The position numbers and the translations under genes were made by a program. The notes below the pieces were generated by a model. It saw only the letters and a program-made list of their open reading frames with translations, ran no database searches and was not told the origin of the DNA. A DNA stretch of 64,000 nt from Xestospongia muta (taxonomy: Eukaryota > Porifera > Demospongiae > Haplosclerida > Petrosiidae), in NCBI GenBank assembly GCA_963693285.1, contig OY848918.1:4407876-4471875 (forward strand), in the 5' to 3' direction. Every line of letters begins with the position of its first letter. Within the stretch, counting starts at the first letter, position 1. Positions 1,515-41,003 of the stretch are shown here, piece by piece.

Positions 1515-3756
1515 TTACTGCTTTATCACACCATATGCAGCACATGTGTTCATCTCTAGTTCAGTAGTAGGTAGTGTATTAGTGATAATATCAACATACT
1601 CATAGTGAGGTATAACTTGATGAGGGACAGTATCTGTTAGTGGATTAACAGGAGATGGTACAGTACCTACAATGGATAATACCATTTACAAACTATTCCC
1701 ACTGTTAGCATTACCTTGTCTCAGTGACTTAGTTCTTCTTATCCAACATATCACTATATGTACTAGTACAGTACATACCAGTATTAGAACTGACACACCC
1801 ACTAGACTACCTATATATTACATATAGTATAAATAGTAACATATAAAGTTTTTCAACTACATTATGTATGGTTCTGGTAATATATTGAAGCTTGAATATA
1901 ATGTAATATAATATTGAGTATATGTACATATAATATTATTATGAATTAGTGAAGTTAGTTCAAGTATAATATTATTTTGATAGACTTTTAGTCAGAGATA
2001 TAGTTTTTTGTTTGCCTTTCCTATTGTAAGCTTTTAAATATAAATAAACTTTTCATTATAAATTACATACCTCCTAATGCAGCTGTTACGTAACTTGTGT
2101 TCTTATGAACATGTGTATCTGTAGGACATGTGACAAATAATTGAAAACATCTTATGGTAATAACATATTTGTGTTACACTGACTTGGATAATCAGTTATT
2201 CCTTTAGTTACTATTACTGTAAGAAATGGTACAACGGCCACAGGAGGAGATGGTTCTAATCCAGTAATAGTGATATTAGTAAATGATATTGCCCAGTCAT
2301 CTGATAATGTATCCTCCTCTTCAATATCATATACATACATATTATATATACCACTAGGTATATCATATGTACATCCAATTACTGTACTAGTACATACTGG
2401 AGAACACATCAATGATATGTTAGTACTGTAGGTAGAGGAGGTTAATGAAATAAGACAACCTTTAACAATAGCTCCTCTTATAAAATGACAGCTGTAACAT
2501 ATTCTACCAATATTAATTAGGTCATTATATAGAGTAGCTTCAGTAATATCGTATGTACCTAATCAATGAGAAAATATTTGTAAGTCATTTATAATGTACT
2601 TACTTAGTACAGTTGATTCTGTTACATCAATAACAACTCCACTTGGTAATGATAAACTCATTCTTGTCTTCCATATTTTATTCTCAGTTATATTTACAAT
2701 ATAGATAGTAACAACAATAACTCCTTCATCAGTTATAATTATTGGATTATTTAGAAATATAGAAGAATTATCTTCATTGTATATAACAACATTTAGTTGA
2801 CCTGACTCCACTGTGTCTGGACATTGTTGAAGTTCCTAATATCACAAACATGAGGTACCTAGAGATATCATAATGTAACTTACCAAATCATATATTGTTA
2901 TATTTAGTATCCAACTATTAATTGATCTGATAAATGTAGTTGTTAAAGTACTTATATTAACTAAAACCAAAGTAACAAATTATACTTTAGTAACCATAGT
3001 GATAATACCTCCTGGAACATGTAGTAATGTAGTAGTTATCTCTCCTTCTCCAGCTGAATTATTACAGGCTACACTAATTGTATAGTTACCAAATTGACTG
3101 GGACAATAGTTGTACTTCCATATTGTAGAAGATGTAGTGTTCTGTGCAAGTAGTTCTCCTCCATAAGTAACATTGACGATATAACCAGGTATGGATACCA
3201 GAGAGAAGGGAGGAGTCCAGGAACAGTTTATATACTGACTTTGTACACGACATATCAAGTTGTTAACAGCAGCTAGTTCACCTAATGAGAGGAGATATAA
3301 TGACATATATCAGAGAGTGTGTTACCTTGTATTTTCAGAGTAGCTAGTTCACTGTTGTTACTATAAAGATTACCATCAACAAGTCCTGAGGCAATACATC
3401 TCACTACTGTATTGTTATATTGAGGATATCCAGGTATGATAAGACTGGATTTAGATGATCCTGCTCCATTTGTAACAATACCAAGTTTAATAATGGCATT
3501 GTTAGTAGAACCTGTTCCATTTATATACCAAGTAATACCCACACCATTATGATCTACTGAACATTGGTAATGTGCTAATTGATAGACTCCAATGTTAGGA
3601 GATGGAGTAAATATGAACTGAACAGCTATATAATAAAACTAAATAAAATAGTACATTAGTTATTAATATAATCATACCTGTACATTTTAATATAATAGAT
3701 ACTAACAATATCAGTAGTAGCCATGTTGTCTTCACTAGATCCATATTGAGGTCCAT
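1515..3756 (-). CDS. Ig/FN3 transmembrane receptor with tyrosine tail, best preserved copy
   Basis: Exons, read on the minus strand: signal peptide (3744 or in-frame 3756 to 3678; MDLVKTTWLLLILLV), Ig domain (3625-3326; cysteines in AHYQCSVD and VVRCIAS), FN3-type domain (3281-3009; INCSWTPPFS, NYTISVACNNSAGEG), a linker exon (about 2968-2884), extracellular exons near 2840-2608 and 2556-2150, a juxtamembrane exon (2118-2071), a 96-bp TM exon (1810-1715; GVSVLILVCTVLVHIVICW then basic IRRTK) and the tail exon (1666-1515; YEYVDII, AAYGVIKQ, stop). Nearly all junctions have GT..AG and phase 1, so domains are modular. The only weak point is the donor of the 2556-2150 exon: its frame stops near 2152 unless a weak GTCAGT donor is used. 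Likely a type I plasma-membrane receptor; the ligand is unknown. This family is repeated across the window. Confidence 0.75.
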
Positions 3757-5152
3757 ACTGAGGTTGTCTTTACAACAAATGTGTTATGAAAATTGTAATA
3801 TATTTAATATCATTTATTTGAATTATCTTGTCATGTTATTATCAATTGTTACACATTGTGTAATATATTTAGTTAATGTTGTCATTATGATATTGTTAAG
3901 TTTATCAATCATTACTAATAAATTTATAGTATAACAAGTACATGTTTTTTACTCTGTCCTTATACTTTAATAACTAAGAATTATATCTTGTAGTACACTA
4001 CGGTCATCATGTCTGCAATATAACTGGTCAAATAAGTACTATTTGATATAATCTTTCTTGTAGTCACACCAAGGGAATAACTGTATTTATGAGTGTAAAA
4101 AAATTGACAACCTAAAATCCACACTGTAACATAGGATCACTTACCTCTTAGTACAGATAGTAATGTACTACATATCTCTTCTTCTCCAAAAAGTATACAA
4201 CAAATCCCATACACCATTTACTATCTTCTAGTCAGAGTTAGTATCTTTATGACATGGGATGGAATGCTTATTGGCAGCTGCTTATAGGGTAGGCCAGAAA
4301 TTAAAAGGCTCGATAATGGTGTAGACTGATTAATAATTAATAACAGCTAGTCAGTAAATTAGTAACAAATATATAATGATATGTGTGTGGATTGTATGTA
4401 AATAACATTGTTAATGGACATTATAAAGTATATCTCTTAAAATTATGGTTTATAAAGTTTATAAAATTATTTATGTATATTATAGTAGGTTACTAACCAC
4501 ATGTAAAGAATTCTACTATAATGTACAATATGTACATTATAGTAGTGCTCTTTAAGTGAACTTAATAATTTATTATAACAATAATTATTGAATCTTTCTA
4601 GCAGTGTGACTTCTGTAGAAGATACATGAAAACATGATAGATAACAAACCACATACATGTAATAACTTGTCATACATGTACATAATTTTATATACCTTAT
4701 ATAGAGTTAATATATAGAGTTATATTTACATGTACCTGGGATGTTCATATACATGTACATAGTATAATTTATTTGCTCAAGCTCCCAATATGCTGGTTCA
4801 CTAGTGATATTAACAAAGTCCTGAATTTGCTTGCAGTCTACTGTATGAAGGAATGATAAAAATATATTTGTTCTAATTATAGTTTAGATGACAGTCACAT
4901 CAATAATATGATATAGTGAAAGTGAAAAGTGGTGTCAATTTTTAAGATATATAAACATTAGTTTCATGGTACTCACTACCACTCACTGTAGTTACATATA
5001 ATGTTATAAAGTTACCCTTTGTACATTTAATGTTGCCAGTTGAGTATATCTCATATCATAACAGTTACCTAAGGAGAGATAAACATAAAATAACATTACT
5101 GATTAGAATTAACAAGATTATAATTGAAAGGAGATACTTTAAGTTGATGACA
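3757..5152. other. Intergenic flank of the receptor gene
   Basis: No gene I can support. It should hold the promoter of the minus-strand receptor that starts at 3744/3756. Two stretches (about 4140-4195 and 11990-12055) resemble each other and the FN3 exon end (tctctccttctc), so they may be decayed receptor exons. Several palindromic acatgta tracts occur at 4670-4770. Confidence 0.3.
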
Positions 5153-5269
5153 CTAGTACACCAACTTCATTGCTCCAATTACTATTACCAATCCGATACC
5201 TATACTTAGTACAGAAGCAACTTTAAGTGAATAAAAAAAATTTTTGTTTTTACTGTGAAACATTTTCAT
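5153..5269 (-). CDS. Small ORF or exon with one membrane helix
   Basis: ATG at 5269-5267 opens 38 codons ending in TAG. A basic N-terminus (MKMFHSKNKN) is followed by a hydrophobic helix (VASVLSIGIGLVIVIGAMK). It could be a small membrane peptide, or the TM exon of a decayed receptor, because a CTTAAAG acceptor-like site lies inside it. No homology is recognised. Confidence 0.25.
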   Translation of the reverse strand: MKMFHSKNKNFFYSLKVASVLSIGIGLVIVIGAMKLVY

Positions 5270-9325: not shown

Positions 9326-10807
9326 ATGGTTGGACGTTGCAAGGGTCTGTATTCGATTTTATTCCTATTTATTTTCATTGTAAATATATATTTTATTGTG
9401 ACGTACTATCATCCAAAAGAGCTGAGTAATTGGTTAATAGAGAACATAGTGCAACTAAGAAATGACGAACAAAATCGAAACTGTTCAAATATAGCAGGCT
9501 TACAAGAGGACTGTTTTCCACTTGTCAACTGGACATTATACACAGGTAAATCGACACATCAAGAGATATCGCCATTAATTCCCAAAGATCTCAAAGAGGC
9601 TGCTATGCTTTTCAGGAAAAATAGCCAGATTTTACGTAAAACATCGCCGACCCAACTACTAAGAAAATTACTACAAGGTCTGCCGTTGTCATGCTATTCT
9701 CGAAAAGAAGGAATCTTTCTTAAAAGCTATGAGAATTTGTTAACTACCCTCTCTAACTACACTCAAATATACCAAAATCTGTCGAAAGAAAATTCAAGAA
9801 CCACTAGAACATTGGTATGGCAATGTCATATTGACCAGGTTTGTGGTGGAATAGCAGACAGATTAAGAGGTATGACATTTGCTTTGTTTTTAGCTGTATT
9901 TAGTAGAAGAAAATTGGTGTTAGACTGGAAATCATCTTTTGAAAGCCAATTATTCAAACCCAATCTAATTAACTGGGAACCGGACAATGCCCTCCTTCAG
10001 ATAATAAAGAATCCTAAAAATATTGTTAAAATTCACGTGCAGTCAACTACTAAAGATCCATACTTGTCTAAGTCTAAAAGAAAGTGGAAAAATTACCTAC
10101 ATATAATAGGTGGTAATCAGCCTCATGTTGTCATGGTAACTAACGTTATGATGATAGCTCTTACAACTAAAACATCTATGGCCAACCACCATTGGTTAGC
10201 TGAAGGAGTTAAATCAGCAGGACTATTGAACCTATCCATTAGCAACCTAAATGGAATTATTGGAATAGCTTTTAGGTATTTGTTCCAATGGGACGAACGC
10301 TTCTTAAGGGAACTCTCCAAAGCAGAGGAAATTTTAAAGTTGACTAATCAACCTTATATTGGAGTTCATGTAAGAACAGGTTTTTATGGTGTGAAATATG
10401 TCCAAGATTTTCAACATAAAAAATTGATCAAAGATGAACATGTTTGGAAGTCTGTGTTACAATGTGCAGTGTCTATAGCTAACAAGTTTCTAGGTAATAA
10501 TAGTCTTCTATTTTTAGCTACAGACTCCAATGTAGTCAAGGAAATGGCAGTCAGTACATATGGGATGAGATTTCGATCACTTAATAACTATCTTGCACAT
10601 GTCGATAGGAAAATAAAGTTACCAGGTAGACAAGAAGAAGGAGCTCTATATACTCTAGTTGATTTGTTTCTTCTTGGACAATCGTATGTGTTGGTAAGAG
10701 GAGATAGTGGATATCCATGGTTAGCTAGTCTGTTGTGTGGTCTACCTAAAGAACATGTTATTGATGGTAGTAATTGCAAAGTGTATGATGATAGTGTTGT
10801 ACAATAA
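9326..10807 (+). CDS. Fucosyltransferase-like type II membrane glycosyltransferase, copy 1
   Basis: 493 residues in a single exon. A short cytoplasmic end is followed by a signal-anchor helix (about residues 9-27) and a luminal domain with several N-glycosylation sequons (NWT, NYT, NLS): the layout of a Golgi enzyme. Motifs: CGGIADRLRGM (about 172-182), a glycine-rich GDP-sugar loop like those of alpha-1,2/1,6 and O-fucosyltransferases; GVHVRTG (about 345-351), resembling motif I of that superfamily; FLATDS (about 395-400), like the LATDD motif of FUT8/NodZ enzymes; and DLFLLG...GDSGYPWLASL near the C-terminus. These suggest GDP-fucose as donor, by inference; the acceptor is unknown. The start ATG is supported by alignment of all four copies. 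Confidence 0.6.
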   Translation: MVGRCKGLYSILFLFIFIVNIYFIVTYYHPKELSNWLIENIVQLRNDEQNRNCSNIAGLQEDCFPLVNWTLYTGKSTHQEISPLIPKDLKEAAMLFRKNSQILRKTSPTQLLRKLLQGLPLSCYSRKEGIFLKSYENLLTTLSNYTQIYQNLSKENSRTTRTLVWQCHIDQVCGGIADRLRGMTFALFLAVFSRRKLVLDWKSSFESQLFKPNLINWEPDNALLQIIKNPKNIVKIHVQSTTKDPYLSKSKRKWKNYLHIIGGNQPHVVMVTNVMMIALTTKTSMANHHWLAEGVKSAGLLNLSISNLNGIIGIAFRYLFQWDERFLRELSKAEEILKLTNQPYIGVHVRTGFYGVKYVQDFQHKKLIKDEHVWKSVLQCAVSIANKFLGNNSLLFLATDSNVVKEMAVSTYGMRFRSLNNYLAHVDRKIKLPGRQEEGALYTLVDLFLLGQSYVLVRGDSGYPWLASLLCGLPKEHVIDGSNCKVYDDSVVQ

Positions 10808-23690: not shown

Positions 23691-24000
23691 TAGATATGGT
23701 GTTAATTATAATGTCCTTACTCAATACTCATATTTGCAAAACTCGAGAATTTAATTACTATAGTTAAAAGAAAAAATAGTTGCCCTCAAATTATTGCCCA
23801 GGCCATGGCCTGAAGGGCTGGGTGGAATCTCCAGACCTGGTTTCAAGTAACAATTCAGTGAACTTCATAATACTTCCACATTATTCACGTTATTTAAACT
23901 TATTTCACGATTTGAGATCACTACGTCATATTCTACCGCTATGCATGTGGACATCCGGCTTAGCATAGTTTCACTGTCGTATAGTATCTATAGTAGAACT

Positions 24001-25485
24001 ATGGTTGAGCGTTGCAAACGTTCGTATTTTATTTTATTCCTATTTTTTTTCATTGCCGTTATATATTTTTTGGTGATGTCCTATCATCCAAAAGAACTGA
24101 GTAATTATTGGTTAATAGAGAACATAGTGGACCAAGGAAATGACGAACAAAATCGAAACTGTTCAAATATACCAGGCTTACAAGAGGACTGTTTGCCACT
24201 TCTCAACTGGACATTATATACAGGTAAATCGATACATCAAGAGATGTCGCCATTAATTCCCGAAGATCTCAAAGAGGCTGCTATGCTTTTCAGCAAAAAT
24301 AGCCAGATTTTACGTAAAACATCGCCGACCCAACTACTAAGAAAATTACTACAAGGTCTGCCGTTGTCATGCTATTCTCGAAAAGAAGGAATCTTTCTTA
24401 AAAACTATGATAATTTGTTAACTACCCTCTCTAACTACACTCAAATATACCAAAATCTGTCGAAAGAAAATTCAAGAACTACTAGAACATTGGTATGGCA
24501 GTGTCATATTGACCAGGTTTGTGGTGGACTAGCAGACAGATTGAGAGGTATGACATTTGCTTTGTTTTTAGCTGTATTTAGTAGAAGAAAATTGGTGTTA
24601 GACTGGAAATCATCTTTTGAAAGCCAATTTTTCAAACCTAATCTAATTAACTGGGAACCGGACAATGCCCTCCTTCAGATAATAAAGAATCCTAAAAATA
24701 TTGTTAAAATTCATGTGCAGTCAACTACTAAAGATCCATACTTGTCTGAGTCTAAAAGAGACTGGGAAAATTACCTACATATAATAGGTGGTAATCAGCC
24801 TCATGTTGTCATGGTAACTAACGTAATGATGATAGCTCTTACAACTAAGACATCTATGGCCAACCACCATTGGTTAGCTGAAGGAGTTAAATCAGCAGGG
24901 CTATTGAAGCTATCCATTAGCAACCTAAATGGAATTATTGGAATAGCTTTTAGGTATCTGTTCCGATGGGATAAACACTTCTTAAGGGAACTCTCCAAAG
25001 CAGAGGAAATTTTAAAGTTGACTAATCAACCTTATATTGGAGTTCATATAAGAACAGGTTTTTATGGTGTGAAATATGTCCAAGATTTTCAACATAAAAA
25101 ATTGATCAAAGATGAACATGTTTGGAAGTCTGTGTTACAATGTGCAGTGTCTATAGCTAATACGTTTCTAGGTAACAATAGTCTTCTATTTTTAGCTACA
25201 GACTCCAATGTAGTCAAAGAAGTGGCAGTCAGTACATATGGGATGAGAATTCGATCACTTAATAACTATCTTGCACATGTCGATAGGAAAATAATGTTAC
25301 CAAGTAGACAAGAAGAAGGAGCTCTATATACTCTAGTTGATTTGTTTCTTCTTGGACAATCGTATGTGTTGGTAAAAGGAGATAGTGGATATCCATGGTT
25401 AGCTAGTCTGTTGTGTGGTCTACCTAAAGAACATGTTATTGATGGTAGTAGTTGCAAAGTGTATGATGATAGTCTTGTACAATGA
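24001..25485 (+). CDS. Fucosyltransferase-like type II membrane glycosyltransferase, copy 2
   Basis: 494 residues from the ATG at 24001, chosen because it aligns with the starts of the other copies (MVERCKRSYF versus MIERCKRSYF); an in-frame ATG at 23941 would add 20 residues that no other copy has. All key motifs are kept (CGGLADRLRGM, GVHIRTG, FLATDS, GDSGYPWLASL). By eye about 90% or more identical to copy 1. Unlike copies 3 and 4 its 5' flank is not the shared one; it follows the hAT relic, so expression may differ. The 3' flank is followed by the DDE transposase and SAMD3-like remnants, forming a unit that is repeated with copy 3. Confidence 0.6.
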   Translation: MVERCKRSYFILFLFFFIAVIYFLVMSYHPKELSNYWLIENIVDQGNDEQNRNCSNIPGLQEDCLPLLNWTLYTGKSIHQEMSPLIPEDLKEAAMLFSKNSQILRKTSPTQLLRKLLQGLPLSCYSRKEGIFLKNYDNLLTTLSNYTQIYQNLSKENSRTTRTLVWQCHIDQVCGGLADRLRGMTFALFLAVFSRRKLVLDWKSSFESQFFKPNLINWEPDNALLQIIKNPKNIVKIHVQSTTKDPYLSESKRDWENYLHIIGGNQPHVVMVTNVMMIALTTKTSMANHHWLAEGVKSAGLLKLSISNLNGIIGIAFRYLFRWDKHFLRELSKAEEILKLTNQPYIGVHIRTGFYGVKYVQDFQHKKLIKDEHVWKSVLQCAVSIANTFLGNNSLLFLATDSNVVKEVAVSTYGMRIRSLNNYLAHVDRKIMLPSRQEEGALYTLVDLFLLGQSYVLVKGDSGYPWLASLLCGLPKEHVIDGSSCKVYDDSLVQ

Positions 25486-28691: not shown

Positions 28692-30173
28692 ATGATTGAA
28701 CGTTGTAAGCGTTCATATTTTATTTTATTCCTATTAGTTTTCATCACTGTTATATATTTTTTGGTGACGTCCTATCATCCAAAAGAACTGAGTAATTATT
28801 GGTTAATAGAGAACATAGTGGACCAAGGAAATGATGAACAAAATCAAAACTGTTTAAATATAGCAGGCTTACAAAAGGACTATTTGCCACTTGTCAACTG
28901 GACATTATATATAGGTAACACGACACATCAAGAGATATCGCCATTAATTCCCAAAGATCTCAAAGAGGCTGCTATGCTTTTCAGCAAAAATAGCCAGATT
29001 TTATGTAAAACATCGCCGATCCAACTAAGAAAATTACTACAAGGTCTACCGCTGTCATGCTATTCTCGAAAAGAAGGAATCTTTCTTAAAAGCTATGAGA
29101 ATTTGTTAACTATCCTCTCTGAATACACTCAAATACATCAAAAGCTGTCAAAAAAAAATTCAAGCACTACTAGAACATTGGTATGGCAGTGTCATATTGA
29201 CCAGTTTTGTGGTGGAATAGCAGACAGATTAAGAGGTATGACATTTGCTTTATTTTTAGCTGTATTTAGTAGAAGAAAATTGGTGTTAGACTGGAAATCA
29301 TCTTTTGAAAGCGAATTTTTCAAACCCAATCTAATTAACTGGGAACCGGACAATGCCCTCCTTCAGATAATAAAGAATCCTAATAATACTGTTAAAATTC
29401 ATGTGCAGCCGACTACTGTAGATCCATACTTGTTTATGTCTAAAATGGACTGGGATAATTACCTACATATAATAGGTGGTAATCACCCTCATGTTGTCAT
29501 GTTAACTAACGTAATGATGATAGCTCTTACAACTAAAACATCTATGGCCAACAACCATTGGTTAGCTGAAGGAGTTAAATCAGCAGGGCTATTGAAGCTA
29601 TCCGTTAGCAACCTAAATGGAATCATTGGAATAGCTTTTAGGTATCTGTTCCGATGGGATAAACACTTCTTAAGGGAACTCTCCAAAGCAGAGGAAGTTT
29701 TAAAGTTGACTAATCAACCTTATATTGGAGTTCATATAAGAACAGGTTTTTATGGTGTGAAACATGTCCAAGATTTTCAACATAAAAAATTGATCAAAGA
29801 TGAACATGTTTGGAAGTCTGTGTTACAATGTGCAGTGTCTATAGCTAACAAGTTTCTAGGTAACAATAGTCTTCTATTTTTAGCTACAGACTCCAATGTA
29901 GTCAAGGAAGTGGCAGTCAGTACATATGGGATGAGATTTCGATCACTTAATAACTATCTTGCACATGTCGATAGGAAAATAATGTTACCAAGTAGACAAG
30001 AAGAAGGAGCTCTATATACTCTAGTTGATTTGTTTCTTCTTGGACAATCGTATGTGTTGGTAAGAGGAGATAGTGGATATCCATGGTTAGCTAGTCTGTT
30101 GTGTGGTCTACCTAAAGAACATGTTATTGATGGTAGTAGTTGCAAAGTATATGATGATAATATTGTACAATAA
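28692..30173 (+). CDS. Fucosyltransferase-like type II membrane glycosyltransferase, copy 3
   Basis: 493 residues, intact, single exon. Differences from copies 1 and 2 include QFCGG instead of QVCGG before the sugar-nucleotide motif, SPIQLRKLL with one residue deleted, and HVQPTTVDPYLFMSKMDWD in the middle region; the last is shared in part with copy 4, so copies 3 and 4 form a sub-pair. The 5' flank (28440-28690: tttggaaggacaacaaaaa, actcatgggttcac, cagcttatcaaaacgg) is also shared with copy 4 and may hold the promoter. Motifs and predicted Golgi topology are as in copy 1. Confidence 0.6.
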   Translation: MIERCKRSYFILFLLVFITVIYFLVTSYHPKELSNYWLIENIVDQGNDEQNQNCLNIAGLQKDYLPLVNWTLYIGNTTHQEISPLIPKDLKEAAMLFSKNSQILCKTSPIQLRKLLQGLPLSCYSRKEGIFLKSYENLLTILSEYTQIHQKLSKKNSSTTRTLVWQCHIDQFCGGIADRLRGMTFALFLAVFSRRKLVLDWKSSFESEFFKPNLINWEPDNALLQIIKNPNNTVKIHVQPTTVDPYLFMSKMDWDNYLHIIGGNHPHVVMLTNVMMIALTTKTSMANNHWLAEGVKSAGLLKLSVSNLNGIIGIAFRYLFRWDKHFLRELSKAEEVLKLTNQPYIGVHIRTGFYGVKHVQDFQHKKLIKDEHVWKSVLQCAVSIANKFLGNNSLLFLATDSNVVKEVAVSTYGMRFRSLNNYLAHVDRKIMLPSRQEEGALYTLVDLFLLGQSYVLVRGDSGYPWLASLLCGLPKEHVIDGSSCKVYDDNIVQ

Positions 30174-32670: not shown

Positions 32671-32953
32671 AACAGTATTTGTATTAATCTTGTTTAAAAG
32701 TAGCTATTACAAAACCTGTCAAAAGCCACATGAAGCGTTTGTACATGCTTGTTAATAATATTCATAACAGTCACTTCCTGCTTGTGTACATTCTTGATCT
32801 AATAACAATGATAACTATAACCACTAATTACTATCATTTCACTATGTTCCCGGCAAACGGCGGCATGTTGGCATTAGTGTCAATGATATTCATTGATACT
32901 ATTGTCTTTGCTATTGTTGCAACCCCATAGGACTTCATTTCAAAATCCTCAGT

Positions 32954-32963
32954 AAATATAAAA
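32954..32963 (+). promoter_or_regulatory. TATA box of the U6 Pol III promoter
   Basis: AAATATAAAA lies 20-29 bp before the likely +1 (32983). This is the expected place for the TATA box of a type 3 Pol III promoter. No proximal element could be assigned. Confidence 0.6.
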
Positions 32964-32982
32964 GAAAACCAAAGCATCCCTG

Positions 32983-33000
32983 GTTGTACCGCAAAGCGGT

Positions 33001-33040
<40 letters not shown>

Positions 33041-33053
33041 GGCCCCTGCGCAA
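32983..33053 (+). ncRNA. U6: U6 snRNA, 5' part (gene split by transposon)
   Basis: Starts with a 5' stem-loop (GTACCGC / GCGGTAC at 32986-33002), then the strongly conserved U6 core: ACATATACTAAAATTGGAAC, the ACAGAGA box (33024-33030) that pairs with the 5' splice site, and the AGC triad (33036-33038). The match to U6 stops exactly after GCGCAA (33048-33053). The remaining part of the gene resumes 5.4 kb away at 38480. U6 is the catalytic RNA of the spliceosome; this copy can no longer give a normal transcript unless the insert is excised. Confidence 0.95.
33048..33053. repeat. Target-site duplication GCGCAA, left
   Basis: Identical to 38480-38485. The bases before and after differ between the two sites, so the duplication is 6 bp. 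Confidence 0.85.
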
Positions 33054-33075
33054 AAGCTATCAGCCAATCTTCTCT

Positions 33076-33190
33076 ACAATGGGGGAAAAAGGGGGGAAGA
33101 AGGGGGGAAAAGAGAAAAGGGAGGAGAAAGGAAGGAGGAGGTGGAGGAGGAAGGAAAAAAGGGAGGAGGAGGAAGAAAGTGGTGGGAAAT
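33076..33190. repeat. Purine-only-like tract at the transposon's left end
   Basis: About 110 bp of nearly pure A/G on the + strand (runs of GGGGGGAAGAAGG and GGAGGAGG), immediately inside the element. Such a tract could form triplex or quadruplex structure; whether it matters for transposition is unknown. Confidence 0.7.
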
Positions 33191-33522
33191 ATGAATTGTT
33201 GAAACATGTTTTTCCTTTCTCTCTCCCTTTGGTTCAAACACAGTGTGTTGAAACATGTTTTTCCTTTCTCTCTCCCTTGGGTTCAAACACAGTGTGTTAC
33301 TTATATTATAGAAAAGATAGTGCATTAATTAGAATAACAACTTTGTGGGAACACAAGGATTTAGTCAAAACATGTTTTCCTTTCCCCTCTCTTCTCCTTT
33401 TTGTTCAAACATAGTGCGTTACATATATTATACAGAAAATAGTGCATTTAAGTAAAGATATAAAAGATAGTACATTAAATGTATATATAAAATATAAATA
33501 TTCAAAATATAAATATACTATG

Positions 33523-36500
33523 TTATTTCTTCAAAAGTTGTGTTTTGATTTGAGCCAGCCACTCCTCTTTTGGTATTTGACCAGGTGCGTGGGGACAGTA
33601 GCGGTGGCCACGATATTGTGTGTGGCCAGGGTCAGATGTTGCATTCCCACACACCCGGCAAGAATATTGTTTTCGCTGTTTTGGGAGTGACTGGCTCTTT
33701 CGATGCCTCCACTCGGTTGTTCTTGAGATTTTACTTGAGGAGGCATCAGAAGGTGTAGAGAGCTTGCTAGTGGTGGCATCTGATGGTGTAGGTGGTAATG
33801 GTGATGTCTCGGCAGGAATAAAAGAGGACAATGGAACCACCTTCCTCCGTGTTTGGGCTTGGCCCATGGTATCTGGTGGCTCAGGGAAGGGGTGTGGATC
33901 ATTAGTAAGAGGTGGAGGTGTAGTAGGGAGATTTTGTGCAGGAGGGAGAGATGTTGATGAACATAAATTTGGAAATGGTAGTTCCAAACCTTGCATCAAC
34001 ATTTTTATTTCATCCCTCCTTACATTATTTTTGTACCACCTAACTAATGTGGTCTTGTTGATGGGGAAGAGCACGAGGCTCGTTCCCTCCAACAATTCCT
34101 GACTGTTGAAGAGCCTCACCCTTATCCCATTGTACTCTGTTAATATTAATCCCCACCGAGACATATATGGTACCTGATGCCTACTGTCTGCCCTCCTCGG
34201 ATGAGTAATTTTTTGGCATAAGTAAATGCAGATGGCCTCAACCAGTCTGCTTTTAGCTGGTGATAAAGCTGGTGACCCCGCAGACAGAAAACACCTGAAT
34301 TAATTGACAATGAATGATAAAAACCCATTGAATACCTACCTCTTCATGGCTGTAATACCTACATGTCCTGACCGAGATGACTTGGTTCGAGCAAAGCGCC
34401 CCTGTGATCTCTTTGCCCTTGCTTCGTATGACATAGGTTTTTTGTCAAAGTCAAGGAGCTCATCATAGAGACGTTTGATCTCTCTGGCTTCATCACTACT
34501 AACAGAGAGACCACGAAGGTCAAGCAATGCTCTCGCCAATCTGTCAACTCGATCCCATCCTCCAATTCCCCGAATATCAATAGACTCTCCACCCTGAGTT
34601 AATTCATCCTATAAATAAATAAGACTAAACATTTTTGGAGATATTGGAACATACTTCTTCCTCTTCACCACTATCACTGTCATCATCTGAGGCCTCTGGA
34701 ATTGCAATTGTTGGCTCATCTACATCTACAAGTGGTGGTGGCGTACTTGCGTCATCAATATCCCCAAACCCCTCATCGATTTCTGTGTCAAGGTCCTTCT
34801 TAAGAAGGGAGAGACAACTTTGATGGTAAAGGTACTCAACTCCAAAGAGCTCTCCAGTATATTTATGTGGAGGTCGGTAAAGGGGGAAGATGGTGCTCCC
34901 ATGCAGAGATTGAGAGAGGACATTCACGCGGTGTTTCAGAGATGTGTCAAATGTCCTTAGAGATATAGAAGATGACTGAAGAGCTTGTGAAGCACGCTCA
35001 GCATTCCAACGAGTGATACCATCAAGCAGATATGCTTGAAAGTTCACTGCATTGGCACACGATCCAGGGATGAATCGTGACAGATGTAAATGAAAACTCT
35101 CCAAAGAGGTTGACCCCCTGGCGCAGCGAAAAACAGGAAGTCTGACACCCCCCTTCATTGAATAGCTCATGATGGTATAGAGCTGAATGTTGGGAGGATC
35201 TTGAAGACAACGGACATGGTGCTTTTGCTCCGCCCAGATGTCTTTCATGTCTTCCCTTAACACAGGCACTCCAAGAGGGTCTGTGGCAGTTGACAAACCC
35301 AGCAAAAGTTTTTCAATGAGATCTGTTGTCCACTCAGTTCCTCGAGTTCTTCTCCGACAGTGTCTGGCTAACTCATCCTTTGTTATGGCATTCTTTGCAG
35401 CATTGTCAGATGGATTAGCAATGCCTGCTTTGACTAGCTCACTCTTTTTGGCACTAATTAAGAGGTCAAAGTCATCTGCATCCCACTCGAAGATGCAGTT
35501 TGACAATTTCCCCATAAATGTACCATACAGAGGATGTGACTCACTAGTGCAACCACAAGCTAATCTCCGCATAAAGTGCCATATATCGAGACAAACATGT
35601 AAGCCAGACCACCTGGAGAAAAGAACATTGAACTTTGAGGGACCATTTTGAGAACAACAGTCTCGATCGGTGTAAAGGATTTGAGGAGATTCTTGCTGAG
35701 CATTATCAAACCTGTCCATCAAACCATTGGCGAGCCTCTGCAAATCCAGTATTCCTTCCGACTGAGTCAGGACAGAGATAAGAATCTCTCCCTTCTCATT
35801 ACCTACATTAGTGGCCCATGCAGCTGTGTCTGCATCAGCTCCCTGTAATTTCTTACAGACCTTCTTAGTTGAATCAATCTTCAAGATTGACCCATATACA
35901 GAAGTAGCTTCAGCAAGAAGAGTAGGAAGCCTACTCCACACGTCTCTCACGTACACAGCTAGGAACCACTTAGGTGTCGGAAGAGGTTTGAAGGGTGGTG
36001 TCTGGTCGTAACAGGGGACGAGCTGGTGGAACTGCTCAAGTCCTCGTTTATGATGTTGACAGTCAGTGAGGTAGTGTAGTTGTCTTCTAAGCCATTCCTC
36101 ACTATGTACCTCCTCGAGCTGATTTCGCAGCGCAGTAGAACTGTTCCCAAGTGTTCTGGAACGTAAAAGAGTAACCACAGACTGGTCACAGGCATACTTC
36201 CGGGTTAAAACAACTGGAAAGCGTGCTCTGACACCATCAGAAAGCTGCTCTAACATCCTGTTGTCCCATGACACAAATGTACCATTACAGGCATTACAAT
36301 CCATGTATTCTCCCGCCAGATAATAAAAGTCCCTGATGTCAAGGACCAGGCGAACATGGTTGTAAACACCTTTTGATCTTAGATGTTGTCGGCTCTTACA
36401 ATGTGGACAGTGGAATAGAACTTGCCACATTCTAAGTGGCATCCACAGAAAGAGCCGTTTGTGGTAGTAATTTTCAACCACTGGTTTTGATTTTGGCAGC

Positions 36501-37908
36501 ATTTCTGATGGGGGGTGCCACCAAAGGCTTAAATTGTTTGTCAATTTGCCCTTAGAGACAAACAGAGCACGACCAATCCAATTCCTGTCCCCTTCAGCAA
36601 TATTCTGCAACCAGCCCTTAGGAAGACGTAGAGTGTAGTCTATTGACTGTCGTGGTGGGGATTGGAACGAAGTTGAAGATGAAGATGGTACTGACGATAA
36701 TACGGATATCTAATTTACAATAATAATAATATTAACAAAAAATTATCAATTAAGAAATACCTGGGGTTGAGTACCAGGCTCAGAGTGACACGGAGAGAGA
36801 TTTGAGAGAGATGGGGAAATTGAGAGAGGAGCTGGTGGTGATGGTGGTAGAATTGATGATGACAGAGGAGAGGATAATGACAGAGGAGATGATGGTGATG
36901 AAGGAGGAACTGGGGAAGCGGAGAGAGTACTGGTGAAAACTGATGAGGTGATGAAAACTGATGAGGTGGATGGTGGACAACTGGTTGTGACCGATGAGGT
37001 GAAACGAGGAGCTGATGATAGAGATGTGGTTGAGGCCAGAGGAGGGAGAAGTATTGAAGATGTGGATGGTGACATGGGAGGACACTATGGTCAAAAAAGA
37101 AATCAACAACAACTCAACTAGTTTTAACTAGTTTCTACAAGGCCTATATGGTAGTTGCATATACCTCAGTTGAGCAAGTCCTCTTTGAAATAGGAGAGAG
37201 ATTTGAGATCGTCGGTTTGTATACTTTCTAAAGTGAATGGATGTCTTAAACTCAGACTCACATATGAAATTACTACCTTTGGAACACCTCCAAGAGTAAA
37301 GCCTGCTTTTCTCTTTGTTGATAAAGAGCATACATTAGATTGAAACTTGTTACTAATAATTATCTTACTTTGGAAGCGGTGAGAAGAGATGATTGAGCTG
37401 ATGGTACCTATATGCAAGGTAAATTATCTCTTTGGAAACATATTACTAATGATTATCTTACTTTAGAGGTAGTGGGAAGAGATGATGGAGATGGCTGAGA
37501 TGATGGTACCTATATGCAAGGTAAATTATCTCTTTGGAAACATATCACTAATGATTATCTTACTTTAGAGGTAGTGGGAAGAGATGATGGAGATGGCTGA
37601 GATGATGATTGAGACTGAGATGATAACTGAGATGGTTCCTACATACAGTATTACATTAACTGTGATACTCTATTTTCTTGTTTATATCAACCTACCGAGT
37701 GATATCCACACGTACAATGAACCTTCCCACCAAATGGATCGAGACCTCGTCTGTTTTTATGTCTTGAGCATTGCTCGATTTTTAGTATTTCTCTTGCCCA
37801 ATGAGAGTCGCTTGGAGGTTTCATTCCTCGCCTAAATTGGAATTCTCCATTAGCGAACGCAAATAACCTCTTGCGCCATTCTGATGATGGTAAAGCTGTC
37901 TTCGGCAT
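33523..37908 (-). CDS. Transposase, Dada/DUF6729-like, multi-exon
   Basis: Likely exons on minus: N-terminal (37908 to about 37690; MPKTALPSSEWRKRLFAFAN), small exons in a repeat (37640-37360), a Ser/Pro/Thr-rich exon (about 37085-36762), the main exon (36709-34655), exon 34608-34340 and the C-terminal exon (about 34300-33523). In the 661-residue main frame: zinc pairs C68/C71 and C105/C108, the LLRSRTLGNSS and HSEEWLRR blocks of DUF6729-type proteins, then an RNase-H-like core with IDSTKK (D246), YTDRD (D315), DIWH (D342/H345) and SLESFHLHLSRFIPG with the likely glutamate near residue 520. Next comes RLARALLDLRGL, then MSRWGLILTEYN and a final CRVCG..GHTQYRGHRYC zinc motif. No stop breaks the large exons, so the gene may be active. 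Confidence 0.75.
37360..37640 (-). repeat. About 102-bp repeat of small exon plus mini-intron in the transposase
   Basis: Three copies share gagatgatggagatggctga (two exact, one diverged), a GGTACCTATATG block (37403, 37505, and GGTTCC at 37634) and tatctta / cttta. On minus each unit has an acceptor-like CATATAG and a donor-like AAAGTAAGAT, so the repeat may have multiplied a Ser/Pro-coding exon of about 48 bp together with a 54-bp intron. Confidence 0.6.
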
Positions 37909-37929
37909 TTGAAATAGCTAGAATAACAC

Positions 37930-38265
37930 CTTAGCAAAATATTTCAAATATTTTGAACTTACAGAAATTAATAGCAGCAGAACAACTTCAATAACACTTT
38001 GCAACAAAAAAACCCAGCTAGACCTTAGCTAATTAATAGCAGCAGAACAGCTCCAGTAACACTTTGCAAACAAAAAACAGCTAGAAGAATAACACCTTAG
38101 CAAAATATTTCAAATATTTTGAACTTACAGAAATTAATAGCAGCAGAACAGCTCCAGTAACACTTTGCAAACAAAAAACAGCTAGAAGAATAACACCTTA
38201 GCAAAATATTTCAAATATTTTGAACTTACAGAAATTAATAGCAGCAGAACAGCTTCAATAACACT
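37930..38265. repeat. About 101-bp tandem repeat at the transposon's right side
   Basis: aattaatagcagcagaacag, cactttgcaa, ctagaagaataacacc and aaatatttcaaatattttga recur three to four times, with the last units almost identical (38131 and 38232 start the same way). It lies directly upstream of the transposase start codon at 37908. Confidence 0.8.
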
Positions 38266-38281
38266 GCAGCTGAAAAATGAC

Positions 38282-38394
38282 CACGTGTTTTGTTTCAAAT
38301 GTTTCAATTTTTGCTCACGTGATCTTCCGCAGCTCACGTGATCCTGTTCCAAATGTTTCAATTTTTGCTCACGTGATCTTCCGCAGCTCACGTG
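38282..38394. promoter_or_regulatory. Cluster of five CACGTG E-boxes
   Basis: CACGTG at 38282, 38316, 38335, 38370 and 38389, four of them in the longer form TCACGTGA within two copies of a 54-bp repeat. The cluster is between the transposon end and the transposase 5' end, a good place for a promoter bound by bHLH-ZIP factors. Confidence 0.55.
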
Positions 38395-38479
38395 ATCCTG
38401 TTCCAAATGTTTCAATTTGTTTCAATTGTTTCAAATGTTTCAAATGTTTCAATTTATGGCGAAGCACGGGCGATAATAG

Positions 38480-38524
38480 GCGCAAGGATGACACGCAAAT
38501 TCGTGAAGCGTTCCAAATTTTTTT
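38480..38524 (+). ncRNA. U6: U6 snRNA, 3' part with terminator
   Basis: Begins with the second GCGCAA, then GGATGACACGCAAATTCGTG and AAGCGTTCC: the U6 internal stem-loop region and 3' end, unchanged from the animal consensus as I know it. A T7 run (38518-38524) is a standard Pol III terminator. Together with 32983-33053 it makes up one complete U6 gene once one GCGCAA is counted. Confidence 0.95.
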
Positions 38525-39554
38525 CTTTTGATCATGAACATACCTCCCAAGGCATCTCATTTTTTAGTAGTATACAGTATATAAGATATAAACATGCCAT
38601 GCCATAGTCAAAACTTGTGTCCTAAACTAAATAGACTAAGTTAGCAAATTAAATTTCCTAGTATCTGAATTACTAGTCTTTTATTATAGAAGATACTAAT
38701 CATAGGAGCAAGGGACTTATTATACCTGTTTTCCTTATAAGCCAATCAACACACACTTCAGTACTGTATAACTCTTTTCCTTATAAGGCAATCAACACAC
38801 ACTTATTGTTAAGAGCTAGCTCAGCACTCAACTTTATTTTACATCAAGCTTTGATAAGTGGATGTGTTGATCAACACTACATGTCCTCTTGAACTCCTGA
38901 TACAAGCTGCATAAACTTACACTTAATTTATACTATATTGTACTGAGTGAGTATTTCTATAGGCCATTCTCACTAGAAAGTTTCTAGTTGTAGAGTTACA
39001 TGATGTAATGAGTAAGATATCAGAACTTGTTGTCAACAGTGACACTAGTAAAGTTTGAGCAAATAGCAGACACGTAAGTAGCCCCACCCCCTAATTATAC
39101 CTTTAACAAGTTATTACATATGACGTAGGCTGTGTTACAGTTTATGCTGACTTATACATTGGGTAAAAAGATAAACAAGTTTTAGATTTTTTTGTTGCTA
39201 ATATCAGGTATGGACTAGTTCATGATCACGTGACAATCGTGTGATCTATTGCAGCTATGAGGAACAACCTGGACATGAATCGGTTTTAGAGATGTTAAAT
39301 CTTATCTTCAATAAATATCCAGAGGTAGTCTTATCTTATTGCTGTAATAAGATGTCCCTGGGTTCAATTATTATTTAATAGCTTGGGATCACAACTTCCA
39401 ATTTGGAAGGACAACAAAAAAAAGATAAAAATAACTCATGGGTTCACTCATCACTTGGCAAGTAATAACAATTTATAACCACTATGTAATCCGCCCCTCA
39501 GCTTATCAAAACGGAAGAAGGTGTAACTATAAGATCACGAGATCAACAACTGTT
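38525..39554. other. Flank between U6 and glycosyltransferase copy 4
   Basis: 38690-38790 holds the right member of the inverted repeat that flanks U6 (see 32607), with an internal duplication (ttttccttataag.caatcaacacac). At 39256-39325 the + strand reads YEEQPGHESVLEMLNLIFNK and YPE before a GTAGTC donor: perhaps a stray exon of the SAMD3-like gene. From 39330 on, the sequence matches the 5' flank of glycosyltransferase copy 3. Confidence 0.45.
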
Positions 39555-41003
39555 ATGTCTGAACGTTACAAGTGTTCATATTTGACTTTAATCCTATTTG
39601 TTTTCATTGCTATTATATATTTTTTGGTGACGTCCTATCGTCCAAAAGAACTGAGTAATTGGTTAATAAAGAGCATAGTCCAACTAGGAAATGATGAACA
39701 AGAGGACTATTTGCCACTTGTCGACTGGACATTATATACAGGTAACCCGACACATCAAGAGATGTCGCCATTAATTCCCGAAGATCTCAAAGAGGCTGCT
39801 ATGCTTTTCAGCAAAAATAGCCAGATTTTAAGTGAAACATCGCCGACCCAACTACTAAGAAAATTATTACAAGGTCTGCCGTTGTCATGCTATTCTCGAA
39901 AAGAAGGAATCTTTCTTAAAAGCTATGAGAATTTGTTAACTATCCTCTCCGAATACACTCAAATACACGAAAAGCTGTCAAAAGAAAGTTCTAGAACTAC
40001 TAGAACATTGGTATGGCAGTGTCATATTGACCAGGTTTGTGGTGGACTAGCAGACAGATTGAAAGGTATGACATTTGCTTTGTTTTTAGCTGTATTTAGT
40101 AGAAGAAAATTGGTGTTAGACTGGAAATCATCTTTTGAAAGCGAATTTTTCAAACCCAATTTAATTAACTGGGAACCGGACAATGCCCTCCTTCAGATAA
40201 TAAAGAATCCTAATAATACTGTTAAAATTCATGTGCAGTCAACTGCTGTAGATCCATACTTGTCTATGTCTGAAATGGACTGGGATAATTACCTACATAT
40301 AATAGGTGGTAATCAACCTCATGTTGTCATGTTAACTAACGTAATGATGATAGCTCTTACAACTAAAACATCTATGGCCAACAACCATTGGTTAGCTGAA
40401 GGAGTTAAATCAGCAGGACTATTGAAGCTATCCGTTAGCAACCTAAATGGAATCATTGGAATAGCTTTTAGGTATCTGTTCCAATGGGACAAACGCTTCT
40501 TAAGGGAGCTCTCCAAAGCAGAGGAAATTTTAAAGTTGACTAATCAACCTTATATTGGAGTTCATACAAGAACAGGTTTTTATGGTGTGAAACATGTCCA
40601 AGATTTTCAACATAAAAAATTGATCAAAGATGAACATGTTTGGAAGTCTGTGTTACAATGTGCAGTGTCTATAGCTAACAAGTTTCTAGGTAACGACAGT
40701 CTTCTATTTTTAGCTACAGACTCCAATGTAGTCAAGGAAATGGCAGTCGGTACATATGGGATGAGATTTCGATCACTTAATAACTATCTTGCACATGTTG
40801 ATAGGGAAATAATGTTACCAGGTAGACAAGAAGAAGGAGCTCTATATACTCTAGTTGATTTGTTTCTTCTTGGACAATCGTATGTGTTGGTAAAAGGAGA
40901 TAGTGGGTATCCATGGTTAGCTAGTCTGTTGTGTGGTCTACCTAAAGAACATGTTATTGATGGTAGTAATTGCAAAGTATATGATGATAATGTTGTACAA
41001 TAA
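39555..41003 (+). CDS. Fucosyltransferase-like type II membrane glycosyltransferase, copy 4
   Basis: 482 residues from the ATG at 39555 (MSERYKCSYL). The frame is open further upstream to 39438, but that part is untranslated flank in the paralogs. Relative to the other copies about 11 residues are missing from the stem region just after the membrane helix (NDEQEDYLPL joins directly), which should not affect the catalytic domain. CGGLADRLKGM carries Lys for Arg, and GVHTRTG has Thr in motif I; both are otherwise unchanged positions and could alter activity. It lacks the DDE transposase remnant downstream that follows copies 2 and 3. The inverted-repeat element at 41143 lies 140 bp past the stop. 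Confidence 0.6.
   Translation: MSERYKCSYLTLILFVFIAIIYFLVTSYRPKELSNWLIKSIVQLGNDEQEDYLPLVDWTLYTGNPTHQEMSPLIPEDLKEAAMLFSKNSQILSETSPTQLLRKLLQGLPLSCYSRKEGIFLKSYENLLTILSEYTQIHEKLSKESSRTTRTLVWQCHIDQVCGGLADRLKGMTFALFLAVFSRRKLVLDWKSSFESEFFKPNLINWEPDNALLQIIKNPNNTVKIHVQSTAVDPYLSMSEMDWDNYLHIIGGNQPHVVMLTNVMMIALTTKTSMANNHWLAEGVKSAGLLKLSVSNLNGIIGIAFRYLFQWDKRFLRELSKAEEILKLTNQPYIGVHTRTGFYGVKHVQDFQHKKLIKDEHVWKSVLQCAVSIANKFLGNDSLLFLATDSNVVKEMAVGTYGMRFRSLNNYLAHVDREIMLPGRQEEGALYTLVDLFLLGQSYVLVKGDSGYPWLASLLCGLPKEHVIDGSNCKVYDDNVVQ

What the first reader, a model, noticed from the sequence alone, without database searches (positions are those of the whole stretch)
32983..38524. U6 snRNA gene cut in two by a Dada-like transposon with exact 6-bp target duplication
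The sequence shows U6 from the 5' stem-loop through the AGC triad to GCGCAA at 33053, and its exact continuation from GCGCAA at 38480 to the T-run terminator. Both parts are otherwise uncorrupted, so the insertion is recent. The transposase inside has the features of Dada, a superfamily known for small-RNA-gene targets, so this appears to be target-specific transposition into the catalytic spliceosomal RNA of an early-branching animal.
Basis: partly seen in the sequence, partly recalled or inferred. Interest (0 to 1): 0.92.

Follow-up and report, generated by a model that had tools for sequence, protein, structure and literature searches.

The report
Sponge jumping gene splitting U6 genes
In what is very probably a barrel sponge genome, two of the three U6 genes found (U6 is the RNA at the heart of the splicing machine) are each cut at the same letter by a near-identical jumping gene of the known Dada type, which takes this U6-targeting parasite outside the animal groups in which I found it reported and into a genome that seems to have very few U6 genes to spare.

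Summary
U6 (32986-33053) is interrupted after GCGCAA by a 5426-bp element (33054-38479) and resumes with a second GCGCAA at 38480. The element has nearly all features of a Dada-U6 transposon: same U6 site and 6-bp duplication, antisense transposase, DDE and DxxH motifs, CCCC and CCHC fingers, and a predicted fold nearest the IS256-family transposase ISCth4. One feature fails: the right end lacks the published motif. Kojima and Jurka (2013) described this kind in fish, Daphnia, oyster and Capitella. Six contig lengths point to the sponge Xestospongia muta.

The new part is the genome-wide picture. Three U6 loci were found. Two, on different chromosomes, are split at the same base by copies differing at 1 of 5426 positions; the third is intact. 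All 14 matches to the element's right end lie inside these two elements or within about 5 kb of the C15 one. Older, decayed copies on C1 are not in a recognisable small-RNA gene.

Caveat: the two split genes are also identical over the 36 bp upstream, while their outer flanks are unrelated, so gene conversion of one insertion is about as possible as two insertions. Verdict: new member of a known kind, with an unusually low-copy target.

The parts
32922..32930 (+). degenerate proximal sequence element of the split U6 gene (CCCCATAG; the other two U6 genes have CCCACAA here)
   Evidence: CCCACAA at -63 in the C15 and C7 U6 genes and at -57/-58 in three of three U1 genes; not exact in this copy
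32950..32985 (+). 36 bp proximal promoter with TATA-like AAATATAAAAG, identical to the C15 split U6 gene
   Evidence: 36/36 to C15, 25/36 to the intact C7 U6
32986..33053 (+). U6 snRNA gene, 5' part, including the left copy of the target duplication
   Evidence: Rfam RF00026, E 6.1e-15
33048..33053 (+). target site duplication, left copy, GCGCAA
33054..38479 (-). Dada-U6 transposon, 5426 bp, coding strand antisense to U6
   Evidence: same unit with 1 mismatch in the second U6 locus on C15
33068..33075 (+). left subterminal motif TCTTCTCT, 14 bases from the duplication, mirror image of AGAGAAGA in U6 at the same distance on the other side
   Evidence: published motif TCTTCTCTG/CAGAGAAGA in PMC3706591
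33523..34164 (-). 3' coding part of the transposase gene with C-terminal CCHC finger (CRVC-x8-H-x8-C); the limits are those of the ORF list, not of an exon
34310..34608 (-). further coding stretch between the core ORF and the 3' part; the upper limit is from tblastn, the lower one was read by eye
   Evidence: tblastn with P0007, P0023, P0030, P0043
34625..36610 (-). transposase core ORF, 661 aa, no stop: CCCC finger C68 C71 C105 C108, D246, D315, DIWH 342-345, E504
   Evidence: model with mean pLDDT 89.1
35936..36607 (-). Pfam PF20499 (DUF6729), the N-terminal zinc-binding part
   Evidence: E 7.5e-84
37699..37884 (-). probable N-terminal coding stretch
   Evidence: tblastn with P0019, 37% identity, E 3.6e-8
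38480..38485 (+). target site duplication, right copy, GCGCAA
38480..38524 (+). U6 snRNA gene, 3' part, to the T-run terminator
   Evidence: pattern search

Best explanation
A Dada-U6 DNA transposon with an open core reading frame, in a demosponge (very probably Xestospongia muta), sits in U6 genes at the site that Dada-U6 elements use in other animals. Inferred mechanism: the transposase (zinc fingers plus an RNase-H-like DDE core of the IS256/hAT type) binds its own left end, which carries a mirrored copy of U6's AGAGAAGATT, and binds the same motif in a U6 gene. It cuts 14 bases further on with a 6-bp stagger and joins, leaving GCGCAA on both sides. Shown here: the site, the duplication, the mirrored motif, the motifs and predicted fold of the enzyme, and two near-identical copies in two U6 loci. 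Inferred: binding, cutting order, introns, and that the element is still active. How the second locus was filled (own insertion or conversion) is left to the first rival.
Confidence: 0.9

Rival explanations
1. Only one insertion event; the second U6 locus received the element by gene conversion (homology-directed repair between U6 loci), not by its own transposition. This is compatible with the element being Dada-U6; it competes only with two independent insertions.
For: C2 and C15 are identical over 36/36 bases before U6, all of U6 and 5425 of 5426 element bases, then unrelated; the third U6 gene differs from them at 11 of 36 upstream bases. A stretch of identity that starts inside the promoter and ends at the terminator looks like a conversion tract between genes that share only U6 and its promoter.
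Against: Conversion of the two U6 genes could have come before two independent insertions. In zebrafish three full-length Dada-U6_DR copies over 99% identical are reported and read as recent transposition (PMC3706591).
Confidence: 0.45
2. The unit 36 bp + U6 + element + U6 was duplicated as a block to a second place, with no U6 gene there before.
For: The shared block ends sharply on both sides.
Against: Both loci keep promoter letters further upstream that differ between them but resemble C7 (-45..-37 at 8/9 to C7 in each; CCC of the PSE at -63 in both), as expected of separate U6 genes; I saw no duplication at the outer edges when reading, but made no formal test.
Confidence: 0.12
3. Assembly artefact: one split locus was joined wrongly or duplicated from haplotypes.
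For: The X. muta paper reports primary k-mer completeness of 58.3%, 84 corrected misjoins or missing joins and 28 removed haplotypic duplications (PMC12398682 passages).
Against: Two loci on different chromosomes with different flanks show base-exact junctions and a target duplication that matches the published biology; the X. muta assembly is HiFi based.
Confidence: 0.04
4. Chance hit of a transposon without target preference.
For: Decayed relatives on C1 outside recognisable small-RNA genes.
Against: Three U6 loci were found in 158 Mb; both intact copies are in them, at the base predicted by the published families.
Confidence: 0.01

Closest known systems
Dada-U6 transposons (Dada-U6_DR, _DPu, _CGi, _CT and others; Kojima and Jurka 2013, PMC3706591)
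   Same: Same U6 site, GCGCAA 6-bp duplication, antisense transposase as in Dada-U6_DR, left subterminal TCTTCTCT at 14 bases, no terminal inverted repeats, coding sequence in several stretches, CCCC and CCHC fingers, DDE with DxxH, near-identical copies.
   Different: Host very probably a sponge (published hosts: Chordata, Arthropoda, Mollusca, Annelida); the right end lacks CAGAGAAGA; left motif ends in A, not G; D2-to-E spacing differs by 13; three U6 loci in the assembly against 654 intact U6 genes in zebrafish.
Other Dada lineages (U1, 5S, tRNA; Kojima 2022, PMC8869645)
   Same: Same enzyme type and 6-7 bp duplications in small-RNA genes.
   Different: Different target genes; the three U1 genes here are whole; 5S and tRNA genes were not checked genome-wide.
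IS256-family ISCth4 and hAT Hermes transposases
   Different: 7-10% identity in the alignments; no such target choice is known to me for them (recalled).
Non-LTR retrotransposons of U2 snRNA and rRNA genes (Utopia, Keno, R2)
   Same: Life in multicopy RNA genes (Keno and R2 named in the parts of PMC3706591 read; Utopia from the search listing only).
   Different: Copy through RNA; no transposase (recalled).

Membership tests
Dada superfamily | DDE transposase with DxxH after the second D | tested here: met
   D246 in 119/121 rows, D315 in 118/121, D342 in 121/121, H345 in 120/121, E504 in 114/121 (the query and the 120 listed hits of 515); transposase/integrase fold
Dada superfamily | N-terminal CCCC finger | tested here: met
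   C68 C71 C105 C108, offsets 0, 3, 37, 40 against published 0, 5, 40, 43; C1 to first D = 178 in both
Dada superfamily | C-terminal CCHC finger | tested here: met
   CRVCGNATSDPGHTQYRGHRYC, offsets +3, +12, +21 against published +3, +13, +22
Dada superfamily | 6-7 bp target duplication in a small-RNA gene | tested here: met
   GCGCAA on both sides
Dada superfamily | position of the third catalytic residue (E) | tested here: inconclusive
   E504 lies 189 after D315; 176 in Dada-U6_DR; the published alignment is a supplement and could not be opened
Dada superfamily | groups with labelled Dada transposases in a tree | not testable with these tools
   no labelled Dada protein available; tree of 59 rows built with homologues without target labels
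Dada-U6 | insertion in U6 with GCGCAA or GCGAAA duplication after CCCCT | tested here: met
   both loci
Dada-U6 | 9-bp subterminal TCTTCTCTG at the left end | tested here: met
   TCTTCTCTA, 8 of 9, at 14 bases from the duplication
Dada-U6 | 9-bp subterminal CAGAGAAGA at the right end | tested here: not met
   AGAGAAGA absent from the right 400 bp; only a weak left-right likeness of 12/24, fraction of shuffles 0.013. [quoted passage not shown] the element sits in U6 as Dada-U6 does
Dada-U6 | no terminal inverted repeats | tested here: met
   no perfect repeat at the tips; best local alignment of the two 60-bp ends scores 7 and begins at base 5 of each

The most novel reading that the evidence does not exclude
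A target-specific transposon lives on an almost single-copy essential gene: two of three U6 loci are occupied and one intact U6 gene feeds the spliceosome. The element spreads between U6 loci at least partly by homology-directed copying through its U6 arms, behaving like a homing element of a spliceosomal RNA gene. The C15 U6 locus has received such elements repeatedly and has become a graveyard of them.
Probability: 0.25. Interest if true: 0.7.

Novelty: new member of a known kind. Interest (0 to 1): 0.48.

Why it matters
Dada-U6 had been described from four bilaterian phyla. A sponge member implies either that U6 targeting is as old as animals or that it moved between phyla. The standing idea is that such elements survive because their target is abundant; a genome with about three U6 loci, two of them occupied, tests that idea directly. 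It also gives the unnamed Pfam family DUF6729 a likely identity (inference): the N-terminal zinc-binding domain of Dada transposases.

Tried and rejected
Protein search of the own genome with the transposase core never ran. It was replaced in substance by the Pfam search (21 of 21 candidates scored) and by DNA searches with both ends and one inner stretch. A COX1 family search to name the host by a marker gene also did not complete; the host name therefore rests on contig lengths only.

Search for U6 remnants at the ends of the older copies: none beyond short or low-identity matches at chance level. The C1:25.10 Mb relic keeps a left tip preceded by CCTGTGCAA (U6 has CCTGCGCAA), but its upstream flank is another Dada relic, and nothing past element position 4111 was found of it, so its right tip is missing. 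I cannot tell a decayed U6-derived flank from an insertion into Dada.

A neighbouring host gene was searched to name the host; none of its 72 hits carries a name. Profile search against solved structures by sequence: no match up to E 0.1. The tree has no rows with known targets and does not place the element among target groups. The 14 control genomes of the U6, U1 and DUF6729 searches gave no match, so they served as no positive control.

Papers: PMC3706591 parts 1-3 of 4 and PMC8869645 parts 1-3 of 5 read; PMC12398682 outline and passages; all others search listings only. Supplements could not be opened.

Full report
Observation. The Rfam U6 model matches window 32986-33053 on the + strand (67.6 bits, E 6.1e-15, positions 1-68 of 105) and is the only match above a curated threshold in the window. 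U6 then stops and resumes at 38480 with GCGCAAGGATGACACGC and runs to a 7-T terminator at 38524. GCGCAA flanks the 5426-bp insert on both sides.

Genome-wide picture. The window is part of a 158.0-Mb assembly in 28 contigs. The U6 model gives five matches, which are one whole gene (C7:8168755-8168859, minus strand, 114.1 bits) and the two halves of two split genes (C2, the window; C15:4991177) (47 of 16106 first-look candidates were scored). A 29-mer from each half of U6, with up to 3 mismatches, finds the same three places and no others. U1 has three loci, all whole (41 of 1610 candidates scored). So few snRNA genes seem to be normal here, unless arrays were collapsed in assembly, which I could not test.

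The second copy. The C15 locus holds the same element at the same base of U6. From 36 bp upstream of U6 to the terminator the two loci differ at one base, inside the element; beyond that they are unrelated apart from short promoter motifs. The intact C7 gene differs from both at 11 of the 36 upstream bases and by one compensated pair in the 5' stem. This shows recent spread but leaves open how: two insertions into already similar U6 genes, or one insertion and a conversion tract.

Promoters. CCCACAA occurs at -63 in the C15 and C7 U6 genes and at -57 or -58 in all three U1 genes, 5 of 6 snRNA genes. As background it occurs twice on one strand of 30,000 bases (L006, L008, L009, L010, L012), and one of these two should be the C15 site itself, because L006 contains it. 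This is a likely proximal sequence element. The window's U6 has CCCCATA instead, so its promoter may have been weak before or may have decayed since.

Target recognition. Read outwards from the duplication, the element's left tip and U6 share TCTTCTCT at 14 bases, within a 10-base run (reached by a fraction 2e-5 of 200,000 shuffles) and 14 of 24 letters (0.0004 of 100,000). Kojima and Jurka saw this in their Dada-U6 families and suggested a role in target recognition. The right tip does not show the motif here; it resembles the left tip weakly (12 of 24, 0.013) and U6 no better than chance (7 of 24, 0.47).

Relatives in the genome. The tool warns that such counts are lower bounds. DUF6729 has 15 matches (21 of 21 candidates scored): the two intact copies, five fragments on C15 beside the split U6 (one with a stop, four without), and eight on C1, all with stops, two of them from one place. 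All 14 matches to the right 300 bp lie inside the two elements or within about 5 kb of the C15 one, and all 15 matches to an inner 180 bp lie likewise. Of 6 matches to the left 507 bp, five lie at these loci and one on C1 (81%). The C15 relics span 4984066-5002148, up to 7.2 kb before and 5.5 kb after the intact copy. This clustering at a U6 locus suggests repeated arrival there, though no U6 remnant was found at the relics. The older C1 relatives (77-86% over their main matches) were not found in recognisable small-RNA genes: of eight C1 loci (L053, L033, L024-L029) four were scanned against all of Rfam (L053, L033, L024, L025), and all eight were compared with U6 by blastn. A left tip on C1 is preceded by CCTGTGCAA, close to U6's CCTGCGCAA, but lies in another Dada relic.

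Host. Contig lengths C1 35.350, C2 22.145, C6 8.574, C7 8.284, C9 7.156 and C15 5.301 Mb all lie within about 0.01 Mb of chromosomes 1, 2, 6, 7, 9 and 15 of Xestospongia muta (35.36, 22.15, 8.58, 8.28, 7.16, 5.31; PMC12398682). These are six of six contigs whose lengths I had. The total (158.03 against 158.52 Mb) and the number of pieces (28 against 298 scaffolds) differ. I take the host to be X. muta; no marker gene was tested. A protein 98.6% identical to the core over 440 aa exists on another public contig of 3441 bp (P0001).

Known or new. Three papers in the library contain Dada-U6. Searches combining Dada with sponge (48 papers, 20 listed), Porifera (2 papers) or Amphimedon (1 paper) showed no paper on Dada in sponges, judged from the listings. 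The 2022 survey of the group names at least four phyla for Dada-U6, all bilaterian. The kind is known; the host phylum and the low number of targets are what is new, as far as these searches reach. The finding is real, recent and informative, but not a new kind of system.

Noticed in passing
window 9326-10807, 23941-25485, 28692-30173, 39438-41003: Family of long single-ORF fucosyltransferase-like genes (weak NodZ/FUT8 matches below cut-off) in tandem; the split U6 lies between two of them.
   Followed up: partly
C15:4998937-5002148 (L008, L052): Four similar units made of Dada pieces (element 3044-3277 joined to 4645-4999 and 5022-5212) in inverted orientation beside the split U6.
   Followed up: partly
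C1:22972329-23148633 (L024-L029): Six similar decayed DUF6729 copies spread over 176 kb with similar stop counts, probably amplified as part of a larger repeat.
   Followed up: no
U1 and U6 loci (L057-L059, L006/L007, L009): CCCACAA at -57 to -63 in five of six snRNA genes: a candidate proximal sequence element of this sponge, degenerate in the window's own U6.
   Followed up: yes
window 33054-33208: Purine-rich left arm without TTTT for the first 155 bases in U6 sense, so Pol III could make a U6-element chimera before stopping.
   Followed up: no
P0001: Near-identical transposase fragment on another public 3441-bp contig, sign of the same element in another data set.
   Followed up: partly
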